Assembly: GCA_017558505.1 (NCBI GenBank)
Contig: JAFYUM010000011.1
Coordinates: 77,439 to 141,438 of the forward strand
DNA: 64,000 nt
Reading direction: 5' to 3'
From: Ruminococcus sp.
Lineage (GTDB): Bacteria > Bacillota > Clostridia > Oscillospirales > Ruminococcaceae
In this document: piece by piece, positions 25,490 to 36,117 of the stretch
Layout of the letters: every line of letters begins with the position of its first letter
Numbering within the stretch: the stretch's first letter is position 1
Notes under the pieces: model-generated
What the model was told of the DNA's origin: nothing
Databases searched by the model: none
The model's input: the letters and a program-made list of their open reading frames with translations, nothing else
Position numbers and translations under genes: made by a program

Positions 25490-28132
25490 ATGAAGAAAAT
25501 GAAAAAAATTGCCGCTATGTCTGCGGCTCTACTGATTTGTGCAAGTACTATGGGTTATTTGCCACAGGATTCACTCAAAATCAGTAACACCACAGTTAAT
25601 GCGGCAGAAGAAATCACAAGCGTAGAAATCAATGAGGCTAATTTCCCTGACCTAAACTTCCGTGATTATATCAAATCAAGTTTTGATACTGACTATGACG
25701 GTGTGCTTTCCGCTGAGGAAATTAAGGCTGTAACTGAAATCATTCTCTTTGAAGACGGTCTGCACGGCGAAACAATTGTGGTTTCTGATTTGAAGGGTAT
25801 AGAAATTTTCACAAATCTTGTAGAACTGAATTGCAATGATAGCAATCTCACTAAAATTGATTTAAGCAAGAATACGAAATTAAAATATTTGGAATGCGAT
25901 GGAAATGATCTCGCTTCACTTGATGTAAGCAAAAATACTGCATTGATAAGCTTATCCTGTAGTGAAAATAAACTTACCTCAATTGATGTAAGCCAAAATG
26001 TAGAATTAGTTGCGTTATATTGCTTAGGTAATCAGTTCACCAATCTTGACATAAGCAGTAATGCAGAATTAGAACATTTAAATTGTTCTTACAATAATCT
26101 AACAAACATAGATGTAAGCAATAATGCAAAGTTAATGCGATTTAATTGTAGTGAAAACCTAATTACAGCTCTTGATGTAACTAATAATCCTGAAATTGAT
26201 GTTTTGATTTGCAGTTACAATCAACTCTCTGAAATTGATATAAGCAACAATAAAAAACTTGCCCTTTTTGAATGCAGCGGAAATAATCTTACAAGCTTAG
26301 ACATATGTTCTCCAATTTTATCCGAGTGTGATTTTTCCAAAAACACATACAAAATCACACTTACTGATAATACTTTTGACCTTTCAGCTCTCCCCACAGG
26401 CTTTGATATTTCAAAAGCTTCTGAATGGACAAATGGTACAGTTGAGGGAAATATTCTCACTGTTGAGGACGCTTCAAAGCCAATTACATACAAATACGAC
26501 TGCGAATATGATACATATGTAACATTCACATTAATTCCTGCAAGCTCCGCAGATACCTCAAACTCTGTTGCAATTGATGCAACAAATTTCCCCGATACTA
26601 TTTTCAGGAAGTATGTAGCAGATAACTGTGATACCGACGGTGACCGTCTGCTTTCAGCTGAGGAAATTGCGGCTGTAACTGAAATCATCCTATTCTCATT
26701 TATGGACAGCGGTGTTTCCGATTTGTCGGGTATCGAATACTTTACATCGTTAACGAATTTATATTGTGAAGCTAACAGCCTCACTTCCCTTGATTTAAGC
26801 AAAAATACATCGTTAACGAATTTATATTGTGAAGCTAACAGCCTCACTTCCCTTGATTTAAGCAAAAATACAGCATTGACAAAGTTGAATTGTGCTGATA
26901 ATAAACTCATTTCTCTTGATGTAAGCAACTGTACTGCATTAACTGATTTATCTTGTTCTAATAATCAACTCTCTTCACTTGATGTAAGCAGCAATACGTC
27001 ATTACTTGGTTTAGAATGTGATTATAATCAGCTCACTTCTCTTGATTTAAGCGACTGTACTGCATTGAAAGACTTGTCCTGCGATGGTAATAGTCTTAGT
27101 TCACTTGATGTAAGTAACTGTACTGCATTAGAGATACTGTCTTGTACTGACTTAGGCAATCTTACAACTCTCGATTTAAGCAATAATACAGCATTGAAAG
27201 AATTGAGATGCGAATATAACCAGCTCACTTCACTTAATGTAAGCAACTGTTCTGCATTGGAAATTTTGGGTTGTGGTGATAATCCACTCACTTCGCTTGA
27301 TGTAAGCAACTGTACTGCTTTAACCAAATTATTATGTTATAATAATCAGCTTACTTCACTTGATGTAAGCAATAATACAGCGTTAAAGAATTTATGGTGT
27401 TATGAAAATCAGTTCACTTCACTTGATGTAAGCAATAACTCAGCATTAACCACGTTATATTGCAGTTATAATCAGCTCACCTCGCTTGATATAAGCAATA
27501 ATACAGCATTATTTGATTTATCTTGTCATAACAATCAACTTACTTCTCTTGATGTAAGCAATAATACAACATTAAACACCTTAGATTGTGTCGGAAATCA
27601 GCTCACTTCACTTAATGTAAGCAATAATACAGCATTAAAGAGATTGACGATTGATGAAAACGAATATGAAATTGCCCTCACCGGCAACACATTTGACCTT
27701 TCAACTCTCCCCACAAACTTTGATGTAACAAAGGCTTCTGAGTGGACAAATGCCACAGTTGACGGAAATATTCTCACAGTTGAGGACGCTTCAAACTCGA
27801 TTACATACAAATACGACTGCGGAAATGGACATTCAGAAACATTTACTTTAATTCCACAGATTGACAAAACACCAGCTGAAACGACTACAACTACAGTTCC
27901 CGCAACAACAACAACTACTACTACAGCAACTACTAATCCACCTGCTACAACTACTACTGCCACAACAACTGCTCCCGAAACAACTACTACACCTGCAACT
28001 ACAACTCCCGAAGAAGAACTCCCACAGACAGGTTTTTCATATCTCTACAAATGCTTACCTATTTCCGCTGGCGCATTAGTACTTTTAGGTATGTATGCCG
28101 TTAAAAAGAGCAGAAAAGAAGATGAAGAATAA
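25490..28132 (+). CDS. LPQTG-anchored surface protein with EF-hand-like/LRR modules (1)
   Basis: The 880-residue protein has a signal peptide (residues 1-38), two modules and a sortase signal. Each module has an EF-hand-like unit (NFPDLNFRDYIKSSFDTDYD and then DGVLSAEE near 50-80; NFPDTIFRKYVADNCDTDGD near 362), 21-residue leucine-rich repeats of the form LxxLxCxxNxLTSLDVSNNT, and a cap with ...DNTFDLSALPTGFD. A Thr/Pro linker precedes LPQTG at 844-848, a hydrophobic helix and a charged tail. It is probably covalently attached to peptidoglycan and binds proteins or glycans; ligand unknown. Two repeats at 26744-26869 are exact copies. Confidence 0.9.
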   Translation: MKKMKKIAAMSAALLICASTMGYLPQDSLKISNTTVNAAEEITSVEINEANFPDLNFRDYIKSSFDTDYDGVLSAEEIKAVTEIILFEDGLHGETIVVSDLKGIEIFTNLVELNCNDSNLTKIDLSKNTKLKYLECDGNDLASLDVSKNTALISLSCSENKLTSIDVSQNVELVALYCLGNQFTNLDISSNAELEHLNCSYNNLTNIDVSNNAKLMRFNCSENLITALDVTNNPEIDVLICSYNQLSEIDISNNKKLALFECSGNNLTSLDICSPILSECDFSKNTYKITLTDNTFDLSALPTGFDISKASEWTNGTVEGNILTVEDASKPITYKYDCEYDTYVTFTLIPASSADTSNSVAIDATNFPDTIFRKYVADNCDTDGDRLLSAEEIAAVTEIILFSFMDSGVSDLSGIEYFTSLTNLYCEANSLTSLDLSKNTSLTNLYCEANSLTSLDLSKNTALTKLNCADNKLISLDVSNCTALTDLSCSNNQLSSLDVSSNTSLLGLECDYNQLTSLDLSDCTALKDLSCDGNSLSSLDVSNCTALEILSCTDLGNLTTLDLSNNTALKELRCEYNQLTSLNVSNCSALEILGCGDNPLTSLDVSNCTALTKLLCYNNQLTSLDVSNNTALKNLWCYENQFTSLDVSNNSALTTLYCSYNQLTSLDISNNTALFDLSCHNNQLTSLDVSNNTTLNTLDCVGNQLTSLNVSNNTALKRLTIDENEYEIALTGNTFDLSTLPTNFDVTKASEWTNATVDGNILTVEDASNSITYKYDCGNGHSETFTLIPQIDKTPAETTTTTVPATTTTTTTATTNPPATTTTATTTAPETTTTPATTTPEEELPQTGFSYLYKCLPISAGALVLLGMYAVKKSRKEDEE
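26744..26869 (+). repeat. Exact 63-bp tandem duplication within the LRR array
   Basis: Two identical consecutive 63-base units, each encoding one 21-residue repeat (LTNLYCEANSLTSLDLSKNT plus one residue). Elsewhere in the array neighbours differ at many silent sites. Confidence 0.9.
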
Positions 28133-28213
28133 TTAAATCAGAATTCCAACCTCAATATACATATGTAATACATATATGCATATATTGTATATAGTTAAAT
28201 ATACCTAAAAGCA

Positions 28214-28242
28214 TTGCATTTTGTTATATTATATGATATACT
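28214..28242 (+). promoter_or_regulatory. Promoter of LRR surface protein 2
   Basis: TTGCAT (28214-28219), 17-bp spacer, TATACT (28237-28242). The spacer closely resembles that of the promoter at 32484-32512. Three hairpins follow in the leader: 28247-28267, 28282-28301 and 28306-28331. Confidence 0.7.
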
Positions 28243-28364
28243 ACTATTAACCGAAGCACTCGGTTAAAAATATTTAATAATGCCTGCTGAAATATGCAGG
28301 CAAACCGCAAACGCAATTTTTTGTCGTTTGCAAAAAAATAAAAGAGAATATGGAGGAAAAAATT

Positions 28365-31300
28365 ATGTCCAAAATGGAAAAAATTGCAGCTATGACTGCG
28401 GCTCTGCTGATTAGTGCAAGCACTATGAGCTATATGCCACAGGACTCACTCACAATCAGTAATGTCACAGCTAATGCGGCAGAAGAAGAAATCACAAGCG
28501 TAGAAATCAACGAAACGAACTTCCCCGACGAAAACTTCCGTGAATATGTCAAATCAAGTTTTGATACTGACGGTGACGGCGTTCTTTCAGCTGAGGAAAT
28601 TGCAGCTGTAACTGAAATCATTCTCCACAAATACAGTATGCCCGATATAAAAATTGTGGTTTCCAATTTGAAGGGTATAGAATACTTTACAAATCTTGAA
28701 AAACTGTATTGCAACAGCAGTGACCTTACAGAGCTTGATGTAAGCAAAAACACGGCATTAACTGAATTATATTGTAGTGAGAATCAGCTCACTTCACTTG
28801 ATTTAAGCAAAAATACTGCATTGAAAGAGTTGATTTGTAATTATAACTCACTTACTTCACTTGATTTAAGCAACAACACTGCATTAACTGGCTTATATTG
28901 TAGTGGTAATCAGTTCGCTTCACTTGATTTAAGCAGCAACACGGCATTAACTGAATTATTTTGTAGTTCTAATCAACTCACTTATCTTGATTTAAGCAAC
29001 AATCCTGTATTGACCAGCGTAACTTGTGATATTAATAAGCTCACCTCTCTTGATGTAAGCAACAACACGGCATTAACCGAATTATCTTGTTATAATAATC
29101 AGCTCACTTATCTTGACGTAAGCAAAAACACGGCATTAACAAAATTATCTTGTGGTGCTAATCAGCTCACTTCTCTTGATGTAAGCAACAACACGGCATT
29201 AATTGAATTATCTTGTTCTGATAATCAGCTCACTTCTCTTGATTTAAGCAATAATACAGCATTGGATACATTGTGGTGTTATGATAATCAGCTCACTTCT
29301 CTTGATTTAAGTAATAATGCTGCATTAACTACAGTTGTATTTTATGAAAACACATACGAAATAACTCTCACCGACAACACATTTGATCTTTCAACTCTCT
29401 CCATGGACTTTGATGTAACAAAGGCTTCTAAGTGGACTAACGGCACAGTTAATGGCAATATTCTCACAGTTAAGGACGCTTCAAAGAATGTTACATACAA
29501 ATATGACTGCGGAAATGGACATTCAGAAACATTCACTTTAGTTCCACAGATTGAAGAAACACCTGTTGAAACTACTACTGCTCCCAAAACAACAGATACA
29601 ACTACAACTACTACTGCTCCCAAAACAACAGATACAACTACAACTACTACTGTTCCCCTAACAACAGCAATGTTTACTACAACTACATTTGTCCCACCCA
29701 GTTATTACTGGTATCTGAGCGTTTATCCTTATAACAAAGCAGATACAATTTACGAAATCGGCGAAGAACTTGACTACAGCACTATTTGCGTTTACGGATA
29801 CGGCGGCGGCGAAAATTTTCACGCTGATATCCTTTATATCCCCTTGGCTAATTGCGGTCCTACTGTAACAGTTGACGCTTCTGAATTCGACAACACAAAA
29901 CCGGGTACTTATACTATCTATGTAAAATGGCATGATGCTGTTGATTCATTTGATGTAACAGTAGTTGAATCTGATAATGCAGAAACACCTGCTGCAACTG
30001 CAACCACACCTGCTGCAACTACAACAACTGCTGCTCCCAAAACAACAACTACTGCAACAACTACTACAACAGCAATGTTTACTACAACTACATTTGCCCC
30101 ACCCAGCTATTCCTGTAGTCTGAACGTCTATCCTTATGACGAAGCAGATACAATTTACGAAATCGGCGAAGAACTTGACTACAGCACTATTTGCGTCCAT
30201 GGATATGGTACAATGACAAGTTTTGGCAGCACCACATATATGGATATTCCTTATATATCCTTGGATAGATGTAATTTAACAGTTGACGCTTCTGAATTTG
30301 ACAACACAAAACCGGGTACTTATACTATCTATGTAAAATGGTATGATGCTGTTGATTCATTTGATGTAACAGTAATTGACCCTGATAATCCAACGGCAAT
30401 CCCAGGAGTAGGAATCGACGAAACTAACTTCCCCGATGCTATTTTCAGAAAGTATGTTGCAGAAGAATTCGATAAAAACAAAGACGGCAGGCTTTCAGAC
30501 AAAGAAAGTGCAGATGTAACAGATCTATCTTTAGGCGAGTTGGGCATTTCCGATTTGACAGGAATACAGCATTTTGAAAATCTTTTCAGTCTGTGGTGTT
30601 ATGATAATAATCTGACCACTCTTGATGTAAGTAACAATACTGAATTAGAAATACTGGCATGCAGCAATAATCAGCTTACAAGCCTTGATGTAAGTCATAA
30701 TACATTGTTAACCGATTTGATGTGTAACAATAATCAGCTTGCAAGTGTTGATTTGAGCAATACAAACTGCCTTGAAGGTTGGGAGTTTGGTGTTAATCTT
30801 ACTAACAACAAGCACAGAATTAAGATTACTGATAACACATTCGACCTTTCAACTTTCCCCACAGACTTTGACATTTCAAAGGCTTCTGACTGGACAAATG
30901 CTACAGTTAAGGGAAATATTCTCACAATTGAGGATATTACAAAGCAAGTAACATACACATATAACTGCGGATTAGGATTCTCAGAAACATTCACATTTGT
31001 TCCATACAATGACGCTTCTGAAATGGATGTGGAAATTAATGAAATTACTTTCCCCGATGCTATTTTCCGAAAGTATATTGAAGAAAACTTCGACAAGGAC
31101 GGAAATAAGATACTTTCTTATGATGAATTGGTGAAAGCAACATTTATGGAGATTAAGGGTTTAGAAGTTTCTGACATGACCGGCTTGCAACACTTTTTTA
31201 ATCTTCAACATTTGTATTGTGGTAATAATCGCATCACTTCTCTTGATGTAAGCAATAATACTGAATTGGAAGTATTGTCGTGCTATAACAATCAGATCAC

Positions 31301-32423
31301 TTCTCTTGATTTAAGCAATAATACTGCATTAACTTTATTTTCATGTGATGACAACAAATACAAAATCGCTCTTACCAACAATACATTTGACCTTTCAACT
31401 CTCCCTGGCGGCTTTGATATTTCAAAGGCTTCTGACTGGAAAAATGCTACTGTAAAGGACAATATTCTTACTGTTATTGATGATACAGCTCTCATTACAT
31501 ATTCTTATAAATGTGGAGAAGAAGTAGTATGCTTCAATTTATTTACAAGTAATTATGTAGGAGAAACCTTTGAGGAAATAGAAATTGATAATAACAATTT
31601 CCCTGATGATGTTTTCCGCCGATATGTTGCAGAAGAATTCGATGAAAACAATGACTGGGCACTTTCTTATGATGAAGTTATGAATGTTACATATATCTCT
31701 CTTAATGAATCGAACCTTTATGACTTAACGGGAATACAGTATTTTAAAAATCTTTCCAGTCTGTGGTGTTATGATAATAATCTGACCACTCTTGATGTAA
31801 GTAACAATACTGAATTAAAAATACTGGTATGCAGCAGTAATCAGCTTACAAGCCTTGATGTAAGTCATAATACATTGTTAACCGATTTGGTGTGTAACAA
31901 TAATCAGCTTGCAAGTGTTGATTTGAGCAATACAAACTGCCTTGAAGGTTGGGAGTTTGGTGTTAATCTTACTAACAACAAGCACAGAATTAAGATTACT
32001 GATAACACATTCGACCTTTCAACTCTCCCCACAAACTTTGATGTAACAAAGGCTTCTGACTGGACAAATGCTACAGTTAAGGGAAATATTCTCACAATTG
32101 AGGATATTACAAAGGAAGTAACATACACATATAACTGCGGATTAGGATTCTCAGATACATTCACTTTAGTTCCACAGATTGAAGAAACACCTGTTGAAAC
32201 TACAACCACAACTACAACTACTACCGAAACTACTACAACTACCACTACTACCGCAACAACTACCACACCTGCAACAACTCCTGCAGGAACTGCTCCCGAA
32301 GAAGAACTCCCACAGACAGGCTTCTCAAAGCTCTACAATTGTATTCCTGTTTCCGCAGGTGCTTTGGTACTTTTAGGTATGTATGCTGTTAAAAAGAGCA
32401 AAAAAGAAGATGAAGAAGAATAA
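28365..32423 (+). CDS. LPQTG-anchored multi-module LRR/Ig-like surface protein (2)
   Basis: The 1352-residue protein has a signal peptide like that of protein 1, module A (EF-hand-like, ten or so LRRs, cap), a Thr-rich linker, two bacterial Ig-like domains (about 29690-29965 and 30095-30375; YEIGEELDYSTICV and FDNTKPGTYTIYVKW), then shorter modules B, C and D (starting near 30410, 31020 and 31570), a second Thr-rich linker and LPQTG at 1315-1319. The Ig-like domains resemble the Big_3 type. ATG 28365 is set by GGAGG at 28352-28356. Modules B and D are near-identical at DNA level. Likely adhesin; ligand unknown. Confidence 0.9.
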   Translation: MSKMEKIAAMTAALLISASTMSYMPQDSLTISNVTANAAEEEITSVEINETNFPDENFREYVKSSFDTDGDGVLSAEEIAAVTEIILHKYSMPDIKIVVSNLKGIEYFTNLEKLYCNSSDLTELDVSKNTALTELYCSENQLTSLDLSKNTALKELICNYNSLTSLDLSNNTALTGLYCSGNQFASLDLSSNTALTELFCSSNQLTYLDLSNNPVLTSVTCDINKLTSLDVSNNTALTELSCYNNQLTYLDVSKNTALTKLSCGANQLTSLDVSNNTALIELSCSDNQLTSLDLSNNTALDTLWCYDNQLTSLDLSNNAALTTVVFYENTYEITLTDNTFDLSTLSMDFDVTKASKWTNGTVNGNILTVKDASKNVTYKYDCGNGHSETFTLVPQIEETPVETTTAPKTTDTTTTTTAPKTTDTTTTTTVPLTTAMFTTTTFVPPSYYWYLSVYPYNKADTIYEIGEELDYSTICVYGYGGGENFHADILYIPLANCGPTVTVDASEFDNTKPGTYTIYVKWHDAVDSFDVTVVESDNAETPAATATTPAATTTTAAPKTTTTATTTTTAMFTTTTFAPPSYSCSLNVYPYDEADTIYEIGEELDYSTICVHGYGTMTSFGSTTYMDIPYISLDRCNLTVDASEFDNTKPGTYTIYVKWYDAVDSFDVTVIDPDNPTAIPGVGIDETNFPDAIFRKYVAEEFDKNKDGRLSDKESADVTDLSLGELGISDLTGIQHFENLFSLWCYDNNLTTLDVSNNTELEILACSNNQLTSLDVSHNTLLTDLMCNNNQLASVDLSNTNCLEGWEFGVNLTNNKHRIKITDNTFDLSTFPTDFDISKASDWTNATVKGNILTIEDITKQVTYTYNCGLGFSETFTFVPYNDASEMDVEINEITFPDAIFRKYIEENFDKDGNKILSYDELVKATFMEIKGLEVSDMTGLQHFFNLQHLYCGNNRITSLDVSNNTELEVLSCYNNQITSLDLSNNTALTLFSCDDNKYKIALTNNTFDLSTLPGGFDISKASDWKNATVKDNILTVIDDTALITYSYKCGEEVVCFNLFTSNYVGETFEEIEIDNNNFPDDVFRRYVAEEFDENNDWALSYDEVMNVTYISLNESNLYDLTGIQYFKNLSSLWCYDNNLTTLDVSNNTELKILVCSSNQLTSLDVSHNTLLTDLVCNNNQLASVDLSNTNCLEGWEFGVNLTNNKHRIKITDNTFDLSTLPTNFDVTKASDWTNATVKGNILTIEDITKEVTYTYNCGLGFSDTFTLVPQIEETPVETTTTTTTTTETTTTTTTTATTTTPATTPAGTAPEEELPQTGFSKLYNCIPVSAGALVLLGMYAVKKSKKEDEEE
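30459..31005 (+). repeat. Module B, direct repeat of module D (31629-32175)
   Basis: Nearly identical over about 547 bases to 31629-32175 with a constant offset of 1170 bases (390 codons) and no indel seen, including silent positions. Module C, which lies between them, is clearly different. Confidence 0.85.
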
Positions 32424-32430
32424 TTAACCT

Positions 32431-32465
32431 AATTCCCCGTGGCGAAAACTACGGGGAATTTTCTT
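32431..32465 (+). terminator. Rho-independent terminator after LRR protein 2
   Basis: AATTCCCCGT and ACGGGGAATT are perfect arms around GGCGAAAACT, followed by TTCTT. Confidence 0.85.
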
Positions 32466-32483
32466 ATACTTTATTCAATATAC

Positions 32484-32512
32484 TTGCATTTAATTTTATT
32501 ATATGATATAAT
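32484..32512 (+). promoter_or_regulatory. Promoter of the dockerin-LRR protein
   Basis: TTGCAT (32484-32489), 17-bp spacer, TATAAT (32507-32512). A TTTATCG/CGATAAA hairpin (32516-32537) follows in the short leader. Confidence 0.75.
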
Positions 32513-32564
32513 GTATTTATCGTATTACTACGATAAACTCTCAAAACGAAATGGAGGAATTAAA

Positions 32565-35036
32565 ATGACAAAAATGAAAAAAATTGCAGCTATGACTGCG
32601 GCTTTGCTACTTTGTGCAAGTACTATGGGTTATTTGCCACAGGACTCACTCACAATCAGTAATGTCACAGCAAATGCGGCAGAAGAAGAAATCACAAGCG
32701 TAGAAATCAATGCAGAGAATTTCCCCGATGAAAATTTCCGCAATTATGTCAAAGAAAACTTTGATACTGGCGGCGACGATGTGCTTTCAGCTGAGGAAAT
32801 TGCGGCTGTTACTGAACTAAATATCGATGCGTGCGGTATTTCTGACTTAACAGGTATAGAATATTTTACTGATTTAGCTTTTTTGAATTGCAATAAAAAC
32901 AATCTTACAGCACTTGATGTAAGCAATAATACAGCACTGCAAGCATTGTGGTGTTATAACAATCAGCTCACTACACTCGATTTAAGCAATAATACTGCAT
33001 TAGAGCAACTTTATTGCACTGAAAACAAGCTTTCAACTCTCGATTTAAGTAAAAATACAGAATTGATACAATTGTTTTGTTCTAAAAATCAGCTCACCTC
33101 ACTCGATGTAAGCAACAATGCAGTATTGAGAAATATAGAGTGTAATGAAAATCAACTCACTTCACTCGATGTAAGCAATAATCCTGCATTGACATCTTTA
33201 AATTGTTCTGAGAATCAACTCACTTCACTTGACACAAACACCTCTACTGCTTTAAAATTTTTAAATTGCTCATATAATCAGATTACCTCACTCGATGTAA
33301 GCAGCTGTCCTGCGTTGACACGTTTTGAATGTAATAGCAATCAACTCACTTCACTTGATACAAGCGACTGTATTGCTTTAAACGAATTATCTTGTTTTGA
33401 TAATAACCTTACTTCACTTGATTTAAGCAGTAATACAGCGTTAACAAAGTTAGACTGTTCTGATAATAATCTTACTTCTCTTGATGTAAGCAATAATACA
33501 GCGTTAACAGAGTTAAATTGTATCTCAAATGCGATCACTTCTCTTGATTTTAGCAAAAACACCGCATTAACTAAATTATATTGTGGTGGCAATGAGCTTA
33601 CTTCTCTTGATTTAAGCAACAATACAGCATTGAAAGATTGGATAATTGATTTCCACATCTCTAAAATTGAACTCACTGACAACACATTTGACCTTTCAAC
33701 TCTCCCGGCAGGCTTTGACGTTTCAAAGACTTCTGAGTGGACAAATGGTACAGTTGAGGGAAATATTCTCACAGTTGAGGACGCTTCGGAATGGGTTACA
33801 TACAAATATGACTGCGGAAATGGACATTCAGAAACATTCACTTTAGTTCCTACAAAATCCGCAGTAACTCCCGAAAAGCCTCCTGTTTCATTAGGTGATA
33901 TAAACGCTGACGGCTTAATAAACTCCAGCGACGCTACCCTTATTCTTTCAAACTACTCAGCAATTGCAACAGGCGGCGATTCCGCATTCTCCGCTGAACA
34001 GACTAAAGCTGCCGATATAAACAACGACGGTAAATGTGATTCTATTGACGCTTCCCTTATTCTTGCCTACTATGCACATACTTCCACAGGCGGTACAGGC
34101 ACAATTGAGGAGTATCTTTCAAAGTCAAACGCTGATGAACAGCTTAAAGCTCTCAGAGAAAAGAAAGAGTCCGAAGTTCAGCTTTTTGCGGCAGCTTATA
34201 TAGGCTGCACCGACGATATGAATGAGGTTGACGCTGTTAAGTGGATAAAGGAAAACAGCCCTGTTTTCTACGAAAATTACAGCTTTGTAGAGGATATTCC
34301 GTCAGGACAGATTGCAGGAACACCTATGGGTGAGCTTTACTGCATTGTTCCCTTTGATGAAAATTCAACAGTTGCAATAAATCGTGCTGTATATGATGAA
34401 AACGGCAGCGGTTCATATGAAAATGTCATCTACAGAAGTGAAAGCGGCGAGCCTGTATTGCTTTTCTGCAACAACTCAGGAGTTGACGGCGATACAATGG
34501 TAACTATTACCGATTCTGACGGAAACAAGGCTGTATGGTTCCCAAGTCTTGATGAAAAGCTGATGATGAACTGCCCCTATAATGCAAATTACGACACCTT
34601 TGTATACGATTTCTCACAGTATCAGGAAATACTTGAAAAAGGGCATACATCACGCAAAAACAGCGGCTGGAATCTCCCAACTGCTGCCGACCTGCGATTT
34701 ACTAACTGGTCAGGCGTTGATTACAGAGGCTCAGAAGTTATAGGCTCTTACAAAATTGAATTCGGTGAAGATACAGCCTATATCAAGTGGGTTGACGGCG
34801 ATGAGGAACACGAATTCAATGACGTTGAATGGACGTTTGAATATGTAGATGACGCTGCTGTTGTAACCTTTAATTTCAACGAATTTGCAGGTATTCTCCA
34901 GTATAATTTCCTTTTGAATGAAACTGGCGATATGCTTTATACAGCGGTAAACTTTACAAATGAAGATACTTTAGACGAAAACTTAAAGCTTTACAGAATA
35001 CTTGACAGATACGAATACTCTGAACAGATTTCATAA
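32565..35036 (+). CDS. Secreted LRR protein with type I dockerin and unknown C-terminal domain
   Basis: The 823-residue protein shares its signal peptide, EF-hand-like unit, ~15 LRRs and DLSTLPAGFD cap with the two LPQTG proteins, but in place of a sortase signal it has a type I dockerin: GDINADGLINSSDATLILSN at about 444 and ADINNDGKCDSIDASLIL at about 483. A further ~300 residues (515-823) form a domain I do not recognise, rich in aromatic and acidic residues. The dockerin should bind a cohesin on a scaffoldin. ATG 32565 is set by GGAGG at 32553-32557; the longer frame from 32439 covers the promoter. Confidence 0.88.
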   Translation: MTKMKKIAAMTAALLLCASTMGYLPQDSLTISNVTANAAEEEITSVEINAENFPDENFRNYVKENFDTGGDDVLSAEEIAAVTELNIDACGISDLTGIEYFTDLAFLNCNKNNLTALDVSNNTALQALWCYNNQLTTLDLSNNTALEQLYCTENKLSTLDLSKNTELIQLFCSKNQLTSLDVSNNAVLRNIECNENQLTSLDVSNNPALTSLNCSENQLTSLDTNTSTALKFLNCSYNQITSLDVSSCPALTRFECNSNQLTSLDTSDCIALNELSCFDNNLTSLDLSSNTALTKLDCSDNNLTSLDVSNNTALTELNCISNAITSLDFSKNTALTKLYCGGNELTSLDLSNNTALKDWIIDFHISKIELTDNTFDLSTLPAGFDVSKTSEWTNGTVEGNILTVEDASEWVTYKYDCGNGHSETFTLVPTKSAVTPEKPPVSLGDINADGLINSSDATLILSNYSAIATGGDSAFSAEQTKAADINNDGKCDSIDASLILAYYAHTSTGGTGTIEEYLSKSNADEQLKALREKKESEVQLFAAAYIGCTDDMNEVDAVKWIKENSPVFYENYSFVEDIPSGQIAGTPMGELYCIVPFDENSTVAINRAVYDENGSGSYENVIYRSESGEPVLLFCNNSGVDGDTMVTITDSDGNKAVWFPSLDEKLMMNCPYNANYDTFVYDFSQYQEILEKGHTSRKNSGWNLPTAADLRFTNWSGVDYRGSEVIGSYKIEFGEDTAYIKWVDGDEEHEFNDVEWTFEYVDDAAVVTFNFNEFAGILQYNFLLNETGDMLYTAVNFTNEDTLDENLKLYRILDRYEYSEQIS

Positions 35037-35055: not shown

Positions 35056-36117
35056 ATGGAAAACAATGAAAATACAATCGGCATAATCCCCGACAGCAGC
35101 GGAAATTCGGGATATTCCGCAAAGCTTTTGCGGAAATCCTCCAACGGAAATTCCCTTATACTTATAATATTTACCGCATTTATGTTCCTCGGCTCAATTA
35201 TATCCGCAAATATTGCAAATGCCGTGGTAGGCGAGGATTCAGAATATTTCAAGGGAATAGTATTAATCTTATCAATGATTATTCAGCATTTTATCGGCAT
35301 ACCCCTTGCACTTTTCATTTTCAGAAAGACAAAAATCGGACAGGGAACTGATACAATACGTTCCGTTTTCCGCAAGCCTCAGCAGTCATTCTGGTGGGTT
35401 GTGCGCTGGATACTTATTGCGGTTTTCTTCTCATATGCCGCAAGTCTTGCAACAAATATGTTCTTTATGTTCCTTGAAAAAATCACAGGTGTATCGCTTG
35501 TTCAGACGGATTTTTCAGCCGAAAACAATACCTTCTCTCAGATTGTAAATATCATCAGCATTACCTTTATGGCTCCACTTTTTGAGGAAATCCTCATAAG
35601 AGGCGGTATGCTCAATAATATAAAACGCTTCGGCTCGTGGTCAGCCATAATTTCAACGGGTATTTTCTTTGGTCTGCTTCATATGAACTATCCCCAAGTG
35701 CCCTTTGCCGCTGTTTTGGGAATTGTTACCGCATTTATCGCATTGAAAACAAAATCAATCATTCCCACTATTATTACACATTTCATTGTGAACAGTATCG
35801 GCGGTGTAATGAGCCTTATCACAGGCGGTCTGGACATTAAGGCAATACAGAACGGTGATATATCTTCTTTACTGGAAAACCCTGTAGTTTTTGTTATATA
35901 TATGGGGCTTACTTTTTTGGTCATCGGACTTATGGCTGTTGGTCTTGTCCTCTTTATACTGGAATGTATTCTTCACCGTGACAGCTTCAGGTTTGAAAAA
36001 ATAAATCCCGAAGTTTCCGAGGGAAAAAAGCTTTGCCACTACTTCACAGCACCACTCACAATTCTCCTCACACTTTTCTATATCGGTATGACCATTTTAA
36101 ACGCTATTCCGCAGTAA
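35056..36117 (+). CDS. CPBP family intramembrane metalloprotease (1)
   Basis: The 353-residue polytopic membrane protein has the CAAX protease/bacteriocin-processing (ABI, type II CAAX) motif EEILIRGGM and the later FFGLLHMNYPQ and ITHFIVNS histidine motifs, which supply the active site. About eight hydrophobic segments are visible. Bacterial members process or protect against peptides, but most substrates are unknown. It starts 19 bases after the dockerin-LRR gene, with AAGGAG, and is probably in its operon. Confidence 0.9.
   Translation: MENNENTIGIIPDSSGNSGYSAKLLRKSSNGNSLILIIFTAFMFLGSIISANIANAVVGEDSEYFKGIVLILSMIIQHFIGIPLALFIFRKTKIGQGTDTIRSVFRKPQQSFWWVVRWILIAVFFSYAASLATNMFFMFLEKITGVSLVQTDFSAENNTFSQIVNIISITFMAPLFEEILIRGGMLNNIKRFGSWSAIISTGIFFGLLHMNYPQVPFAAVLGIVTAFIALKTKSIIPTIITHFIVNSIGGVMSLITGGLDIKAIQNGDISSLLENPVVFVIYMGLTFLVIGLMAVGLVLFILECILHRDSFRFEKINPEVSEGKKLCHYFTAPLTILLTLFYIGMTILNAIPQ

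What the first reader, a model, noticed from the sequence alone, without database searches (positions are those of the whole stretch)
25490..35036. Surface protein family built from EF-hand-like/LRR/cap modules with interchangeable anchors
Three neighbouring genes share the same signal peptide and the same module: an EF-hand-like unit, 21-residue LRRs with one cysteine per repeat, and a DLSTLP-type cap. Two end in LPQTG (cell-wall anchor) and one in a dockerin (scaffold anchor). The module is thus used with two different display systems. Its ligand and the role of the cysteine ladder are unknown to me.
Basis: partly seen in the sequence, partly recalled or inferred. Interest (0 to 1): 0.6.

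Follow-up and report, generated by a model that had tools for sequence, protein, structure and literature searches.

The report
Internalin-J-like adhesins with two anchors
Three neighbouring genes of a ruminant-gut Ruminococcus encode surface proteins whose binding heads are the same kind as the Listeria adhesin internalin J; two carry a cell-wall sorting signal and one a cellulosome plug, so the parts are known but the mix of heads and anchors is a useful new example.

Summary
The modules are real. Genes g1 (25490-28132), g2 (28365-32423) and g3 (32565-35036) carry EF-hand / 21-residue Cys-LRR / DLSTLP-cap modules (2, 4 and 1). g1 and g2 end in LPQTG sorting signals. g3 does not end in its dockerin: the dockerin is internal, followed by a conserved ~315-aa domain without Pfam or PDB matches. 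The module is not unknown. Sequence and predicted fold match class-1 internalin InlJ first (PDB 3BZ5, titled 'cysteine ladder'), and the repeat is the published IRREKO Cys subtype (PMC2946307). Leucine-rich-repeat dockerin proteins are known in R. flavefaciens (PMC2930009). New details: variability across 50 repeats peaks at the five exposed concave positions; binding heads appear exchanged between genes while the g3 tail stays ~90% identical; most EF loops keep calcium ligands; g3's dockerin is of the class that docks on the sortase-anchored scaffoldin ScaE. Best reading: a small, diversifying set of InlJ-type adhesins displayed at the cell wall by two routes. Ligands unknown.

The parts
25490..28132 (+). 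g1, 880 aa: signal peptide, EF-LRR8-cap, EF-LRR13-cap, Thr-rich stalk, LPQTG sorting signal
25622..26545 (+). g1 module 1: EF unit, 8 Cys-LRRs, cap
26567..27862 (+). g1 module 2: EF unit, about 13-14 Cys-LRRs, cap
28019..28129 (+). g1 LPQTG sorting signal
   Evidence: sequence; (Gram_pos_anchor E 0.002)
28365..32423 (+). g2, 1352 aa: four EF-LRR-cap modules, two Big_3-like Ig domains in Thr-rich linkers, LPQTG
28488..29561 (+). g2 module 1 (10 Cys-LRRs)
29736..30390 (+). g2 two Big_3-like Ig domains (90-93% identical DNA repeat pair)
   Evidence: (Big_3 E 0.0013), D10 and D11
30396..31019 (+). g2 module 2 (cap 95-96% identical in DNA to that of module 4)
   Evidence: (D4)
31020..31562 (+). g2 module 3 (short, 2 recognisable LRRs)
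31566..32189 (+). g2 module 4
32307..32420 (+). g2 LPQTG sorting signal
   Evidence: sequence
32431..32460 (+). terminator-like hairpin (12 pairs) between g2 and g3
32565..35036 (+). g3, 823 aa: signal peptide, EF-LRR-cap, internal dockerin, conserved C-terminal domain
32688..33863 (+). g3 InlJ-type module (EF unit, 12-13 Cys-LRRs, cap); AlphaFold2 pLDDT mostly above 90
33891..34067 (+). g3 dockerin, closest solved relative the ScaH dockerin (8AJY)
34089..35033 (+). g3 C-terminal domain, about 315 aa, no Pfam or PDB match, 89-91% identical in relatives
35056..36117 (+). CPBP/Rce1-like membrane protease gene directly downstream of g3, conserved there in relatives

Best explanation
The cluster encodes InlJ-type internalin-domain adhesins of a cellulosome-producing ruminant-gut Ruminococcus. 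Each module is an N-terminal EF-hand cap, a curved LRR solenoid whose position-6 cysteines fill the core, and a small beta-rich C-cap (identity and predicted fold shown; curvature and buried cysteines inferred from InlJ). The concave face, which varies strongly from repeat to repeat, is the likely contact surface (variability shown, binding inferred). g1 and g2 would be linked covalently to the cell wall by sortase through LPQTG. g3 would be plugged by its internal dockerin into a cohesin, most likely that of the ScaE-type wall-anchored scaffoldin, so both routes probably end at the cell wall (inferred). Heads are exchanged between genes over conserved tails, which diversifies what the cell can hold on to: a host or mucus protein or glycan, or another microbe or plant-cell-wall ligand. 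The ligand is not known.
For: InlJ is the top NCBIfam family for all three proteins (E 9e-99, 3e-84, 3e-59) and the top PDB sequence match (3BZ5, 1.9e-54; 5e-100 with profile A1). AlphaFold2 of g3 residues 45-433 is confident; Foldseek rank 1 is 3BZ5 at 2.2e-20 with InlA and InlF next; VIA-align Z 33.0 over 353 residues for InlJ, tied with InlF. Concave positions 2, 3, 5, 7, 8 have 2.95-3.7 bits entropy with pN roughly equal to pS, whereas scaffold positions 1, 4, 6, 9, 15, 17 have under 0.6 bits and pN far below pS. The genome has 7 sortase matches, 89 dockerin matches and 6 cohesins. g3's dockerin matches the ScaH dockerin (1.2e-12) far better than group-1 dockerins (0.037, 0.42), and ScaB/CttA XDocs but not ScaC/ScaA dockerins. 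Group-2 and group-4 dockerins bind ScaE, including one LRR-Doc (PMC5301203). ScaE-like genes are present in relatives, and a 63-aa ScaE-like C-terminus is found in this genome. Head exchange: EF dS 1.1-1.5 against CTD 0.14-0.27 for the same gene pairs, and the nearest caps come from LPQTG or fusion genes.
Against: No ligand evidence of any kind. InlJ's MUC2 binding need not transfer: identity is about 33-36% and concave residues vary. On cellulose microarrays most dockerins from LRR proteins of R. flavefaciens FD-1 bound no tested cohesin (PMC5301203). g3's dockerin lacks the Gly-Arg dyad of ScaH at the recognition site (Ser-Ser instead, alignment), so its cohesin partner is uncertain. The cap has no detectable sequence relation to a solved or Pfam domain. 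pS between repeats is near saturation, so pN near pS shows weak constraint, not proven positive selection. The function of g3's C-terminal domain is unknown and could be the real business end.
Confidence: 0.72

Rival explanations
1. The LRR modules are cellulosome or cell-wall accessory parts that bind plant fibre or other proteins of the complex, not host or mucus adhesins; g3 is primarily a carrier for its conserved C-terminal domain.
For: Organism is cellulosomal; many LRR-Doc proteins are part of the R. flavefaciens dockerin set (28 LRR entries, PMC2930009); g3's C-terminal domain and downstream CPBP gene are the most conserved parts of the locus.
Against: Two of three proteins carry no dockerin; concave-face variability suggests diversifying recognition rather than a fixed cellulosomal partner; no carbohydrate-binding module was recognised with confidence.
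Confidence: 0.3
2. The repeats vary only by drift and unequal crossing-over among tandem copies; the modules are stalks or spacers with no specific ligand.
For: Repeat numbers vary widely; pN is about equal to pS at concave positions, as under neutrality; near-identical duplicated modules in g2.
Against: The variable positions are exactly the solvent-exposed beta-strand positions and include many Tyr and Trp (15 of 50 at position 5), while convex positions 12, 13 and 17-20 are much less variable.
Confidence: 0.15

Closest known systems
Listeria internalin J (InlJ, PDB 3BZ5, NCBIfam NF033187), LPXTG adhesin that binds MUC2
   Same: N-cap + 21-residue LRR with one Cys per repeat + C-terminal LPXTG; best match by sequence and predicted fold
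   Different: About 33-36% identity, far below the family's whole-protein cut-off (332, 284 and 201 bits against 1700); several modules per protein; EF loop with calcium ligands; different cap; no MucBP match in the Pfam scan; one copy on a dockerin
IRREKO LRR class, Cys subtype (LxxLxCxxNxLxxLDLxxNxx; PMC2946307)
   Same: Repeat LTxLxCxxNQLTSLDVSNNTA fits the consensus position by position
   Different: Nothing in the repeat itself
LRR-dockerin proteins of Ruminococcus flavefaciens FD-1 (PMC2930009, PMC5301203)
   Same: Signal peptide, LRR and dockerin in a cellulosomal Ruminococcus; at least one LRR-Doc binds ScaE
   Different: g3 has an internal dockerin followed by a conserved domain, and sits beside sortase-anchored genes with the same module
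ScaH / group-4 dockerins with cohesin ScaE (PDB 8AJY)
   Same: Closest solved relative of g3's dockerin, full length, E 1.2e-12
   Different: Lacks the Gly-Arg dyad; partner untested

Membership tests
Internalin J (NF033187) | Whole-protein score above the curated cut-off of 1700 bits | tested here: not met
   332, 284, 201 bits: InlJ-type domain, not an InlJ orthologue
InlJ-type internalin domain | 21-residue LRRs with a Cys ladder | tested here: met
   51 of 54 repeats with Cys at position 6; 3BZ5 best match
InlJ-type internalin domain | EF-hand-like N-cap fused to the solenoid | tested here: met
   EF-hand_6 and EF-hand_1 over cut-off in g2; model aligned to 3BZ5 from residue 42
InlJ-type internalin domain | Ig-like inter-repeat C-cap | tested here: inconclusive
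   Cap is predicted beta-rich at high confidence, but no sequence match and it was not searched alone by fold
InlJ-type internalin domain | Binding to MUC2 | not testable with these tools
   needs protein
IRREKO LRR, Cys subtype | LxxLxCxxNxLxxLDLxx(N/L/x)xx, 21 residues | tested here: met
Sortase-anchored surface protein (g1, g2) | LPXTG + hydrophobic stretch + charged tail, signal peptide, sortase in genome | tested here: met
   sequence; (Pfam score 18.5 for g1 is just under the cut-off of 20)
Dockerin type I Pfam family (g3) | Two Ca-binding repeats over the Pfam cut-off | tested here: met
   42 bits against 22.9
ScaE-binding (group 4 or 2) dockerin | Binds the ScaE cohesin | not testable with these tools
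   Only similarity to ScaH dockerin and XDocs

The most novel reading that the evidence does not exclude
A commensal cellulosome bacterium keeps a shuffling repertoire of InlJ-type recognition heads with calcium-set caps, diversified on the concave face much as lamprey lymphocyte receptors are, and deals the heads out between covalent (sortase) and exchangeable (dockerin) anchors so that its surface specificity can change without changing the tails.
Probability: 0.25. Interest if true: 0.55.

Novelty: new member of a known kind. Interest (0 to 1): 0.32.

Why it matters
It links a known pathogen adhesin fold to a commensal fibre degrader and shows one head family used with two display systems. 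It gives a concrete set of heads and a defined variable surface for finding ligands of LRR-dockerin proteins, whose role in rumen cellulosomes has stayed open since they were counted in 2010.

Tried and rejected
The g3 C-terminal domain was folded alone with 4 close relatives: pLDDT 39.5, unusable; Pfam and PDB gave nothing; only weak relatives (30-35% identity) in other Ruminococcus, mostly lipoprotein-like sequences. The cap gave no credible family (a YceI hit at 0.006 in 2 of 15 members was dismissed). Weak Pfam matches to WD40 and beta-propeller families, and NCBIfam matches to effectors SlrP and XopAC, are repeat-driven and were set aside. VIA-align ranks InlF level with InlJ (33.6 and 33.0, a tie), so the InlJ assignment rests on sequence and the Cys ladder, not on fold alone. 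LRR dN/dS between orthologues was not used because dS is saturated or the repeats are misaligned.

Full report
Observation. Three + strand genes lie at 25490-28132, 28365-32423 and 32565-35036. Their first 123 nt are 85-88% identical. They carry 2, 4 and 1 copies of a module: an EF-hand-like unit (consensus V-x-I-N/D-x-x-N-F-P-D-x-x-F-R ... D-x-D-x-D-G-x-L-S-x-x-E), LRRs of exactly 21 residues, and a cap with NTFDLSTLP ... WTNxTVxGNILT. By a simple pattern, 51 of 54 repeats have Cys at position 6. g1 and g2 end in LPQTG, a hydrophobic stretch and a charged tail.

Identity. InlJ (NF033187) is the best NCBIfam match of all three proteins (E 9e-99, 3e-84, 3e-59), at 201-332 bits against a cut-off of 1700, so these are InlJ-type domains and not InlJ orthologues. 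Against the PDB the best match is 3BZ5, InlJ (1.9e-54 for g2; 5e-100 with a profile of 15 rows). AlphaFold2 of g3 gives pLDDT mostly above 90 for residues 45-433. Foldseek's first hit is 3BZ5, whose title reads 'includes a cysteine ladder', at 2.2e-20; VIA-align gives Z 33.0 over 353 residues, tied with InlF at 33.6. The repeat is the Cys subtype of the IRREKO LRR class described in 2010, already noted in InlJ, Coprococcus and R. gnavus (PMC2946307). Papers state that InlJ has Cys in its LRRs, is an LPXTG adhesin and binds MUC2, and that the internalin domain alone can do so (PMC5915736; PMC7291126).

Differences from InlJ. Among 65 EF units found here and in relatives, 54 fit a calcium-loop pattern (D-x-[DNS]-x-[DNS] ... 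E), although g3's own loop is degenerate at position 3; from general knowledge, Listeria internalin caps do not bind calcium. The cap has no credible Pfam or PDB sequence match and, outside this genus, was found in only 3 of 390 sampled genomes of the class, whereas the EF-LRR part was found in 26 of 223 genera. The cap is thus largely a genus-level part, and the EF-LRR head is widespread.

Organism and display systems. The closest named relatives are Ruminococcus sp. MAGs from goat and sheep gut. The genome has 89 dockerin matches, six cohesins, a ScaC-ScaA-ScaB-type locus cut by a contig end and seven sortase matches. g3's dockerin is closest to the ScaH dockerin (1.2e-12), with group-1 dockerins at 0.037 and 0.42; locally it matches ScaB and CttA XDocs of relatives but not ScaC or ScaA dockerins. 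In R. flavefaciens FD-1, group-2 and group-4 dockerins, including one LRR-Doc, bind ScaE, which is itself sortase-anchored (PMC5301203). ScaE-like genes are present in relatives G045 and G046, and this genome holds a 63-aa ScaE-like C-terminus whose cohesin part was not found (the query was confirmed as ScaE by PDB match 2ZF9). So both display routes probably end at the wall. This is inference: g3's dockerin lacks ScaH's Gly-Arg dyad, and most LRR-Doc dockerins bound nothing on microarrays.

Anchors in the genus. In 125 Ruminococcus genomes, 23 carry the module. Of the gene models collected, many end in dockerins (with 1 to 5 modules), several in LPQTG and some in other tails. A single-module LRR8-dockerin protein recurs in seven of the genomes examined. 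Twenty-eight LRR entries among dockerin proteins were already counted in FD-1 (PMC2930009).

How it evolves. In 50 repeats of the window, positions 2, 3, 5, 7 and 8 (the exposed residues of the LxxLxCxxN strand) carry 2.95-3.7 bits of entropy and pN about equal to pS; scaffold positions carry under 0.6 bits and pN far below pS. Position 5 is Tyr or Trp in 15 of 50 repeats. Between g3 and its syntenic relatives the C-terminal domain is 89-91% identical (dS 0.14-0.27), while the EF unit is 55-61% identical (dS 1.1-1.5). g3's cap is closest to caps of an LPQTG gene (90%) and of a fusion gene (89%) in relatives, not to that of its syntenic orthologue. In L031 the cluster is a single gene with three modules, a Thr-rich stalk, dockerin and the same C-terminal domain. 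The simplest reading is that heads are exchanged over stable tails.

What is left open. The ligand; the cohesin partner; the g3 C-terminal domain (no Pfam or PDB match; AlphaFold2 failed) and its constant neighbour, a CPBP/Rce1-like membrane protease gene 19 nt downstream. A strong terminator-like hairpin separates g2 from g3, so g3 and the CPBP gene are likely one transcript.

Verdict. A new member of a known kind: InlJ-type internalin domains in a cellulosomal Ruminococcus, interesting for the shared heads and the diversified concave face, not for an unknown fold.

Noticed in passing
window 34089-35033 and 35056-36117: g3's ~315-aa C-terminal domain and the CPBP/Rce1-like gene after it form a conserved pair in relatives; function unknown. 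The first half of the domain has weak relatives in lipoprotein-like proteins of other Ruminococcus (L038-L041).
   Followed up: partly
L133 (G000:C6:65173-67067), about 10 kb before the window: A small LPQTG protein with a related signal peptide, a sortase gene beside it, and a 132-aa protein that is little more than a signal peptide plus a dockerin very like g3's.
   Followed up: partly
L133 minus strand, G000:C6:72803-73078: A short ORF with the shared signal peptide and EF unit but no LRRs: an orphan or truncated N-terminus of the family.
   Followed up: partly
window 30804-31016 and 31974-32186: Caps of g2 modules 2 and 4 are 95-96% identical in DNA: recent duplication or gene conversion inside the gene.
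   Followed up: partly
G000:C15:36132-38879 (L137 5133-7880): A protein with BspA-like LRRs, a divergent cohesin and a dockerin, resembling the LRR-Coh-Doc (ScaI) architecture listed for R. flavefaciens FD-1.
   Followed up: no
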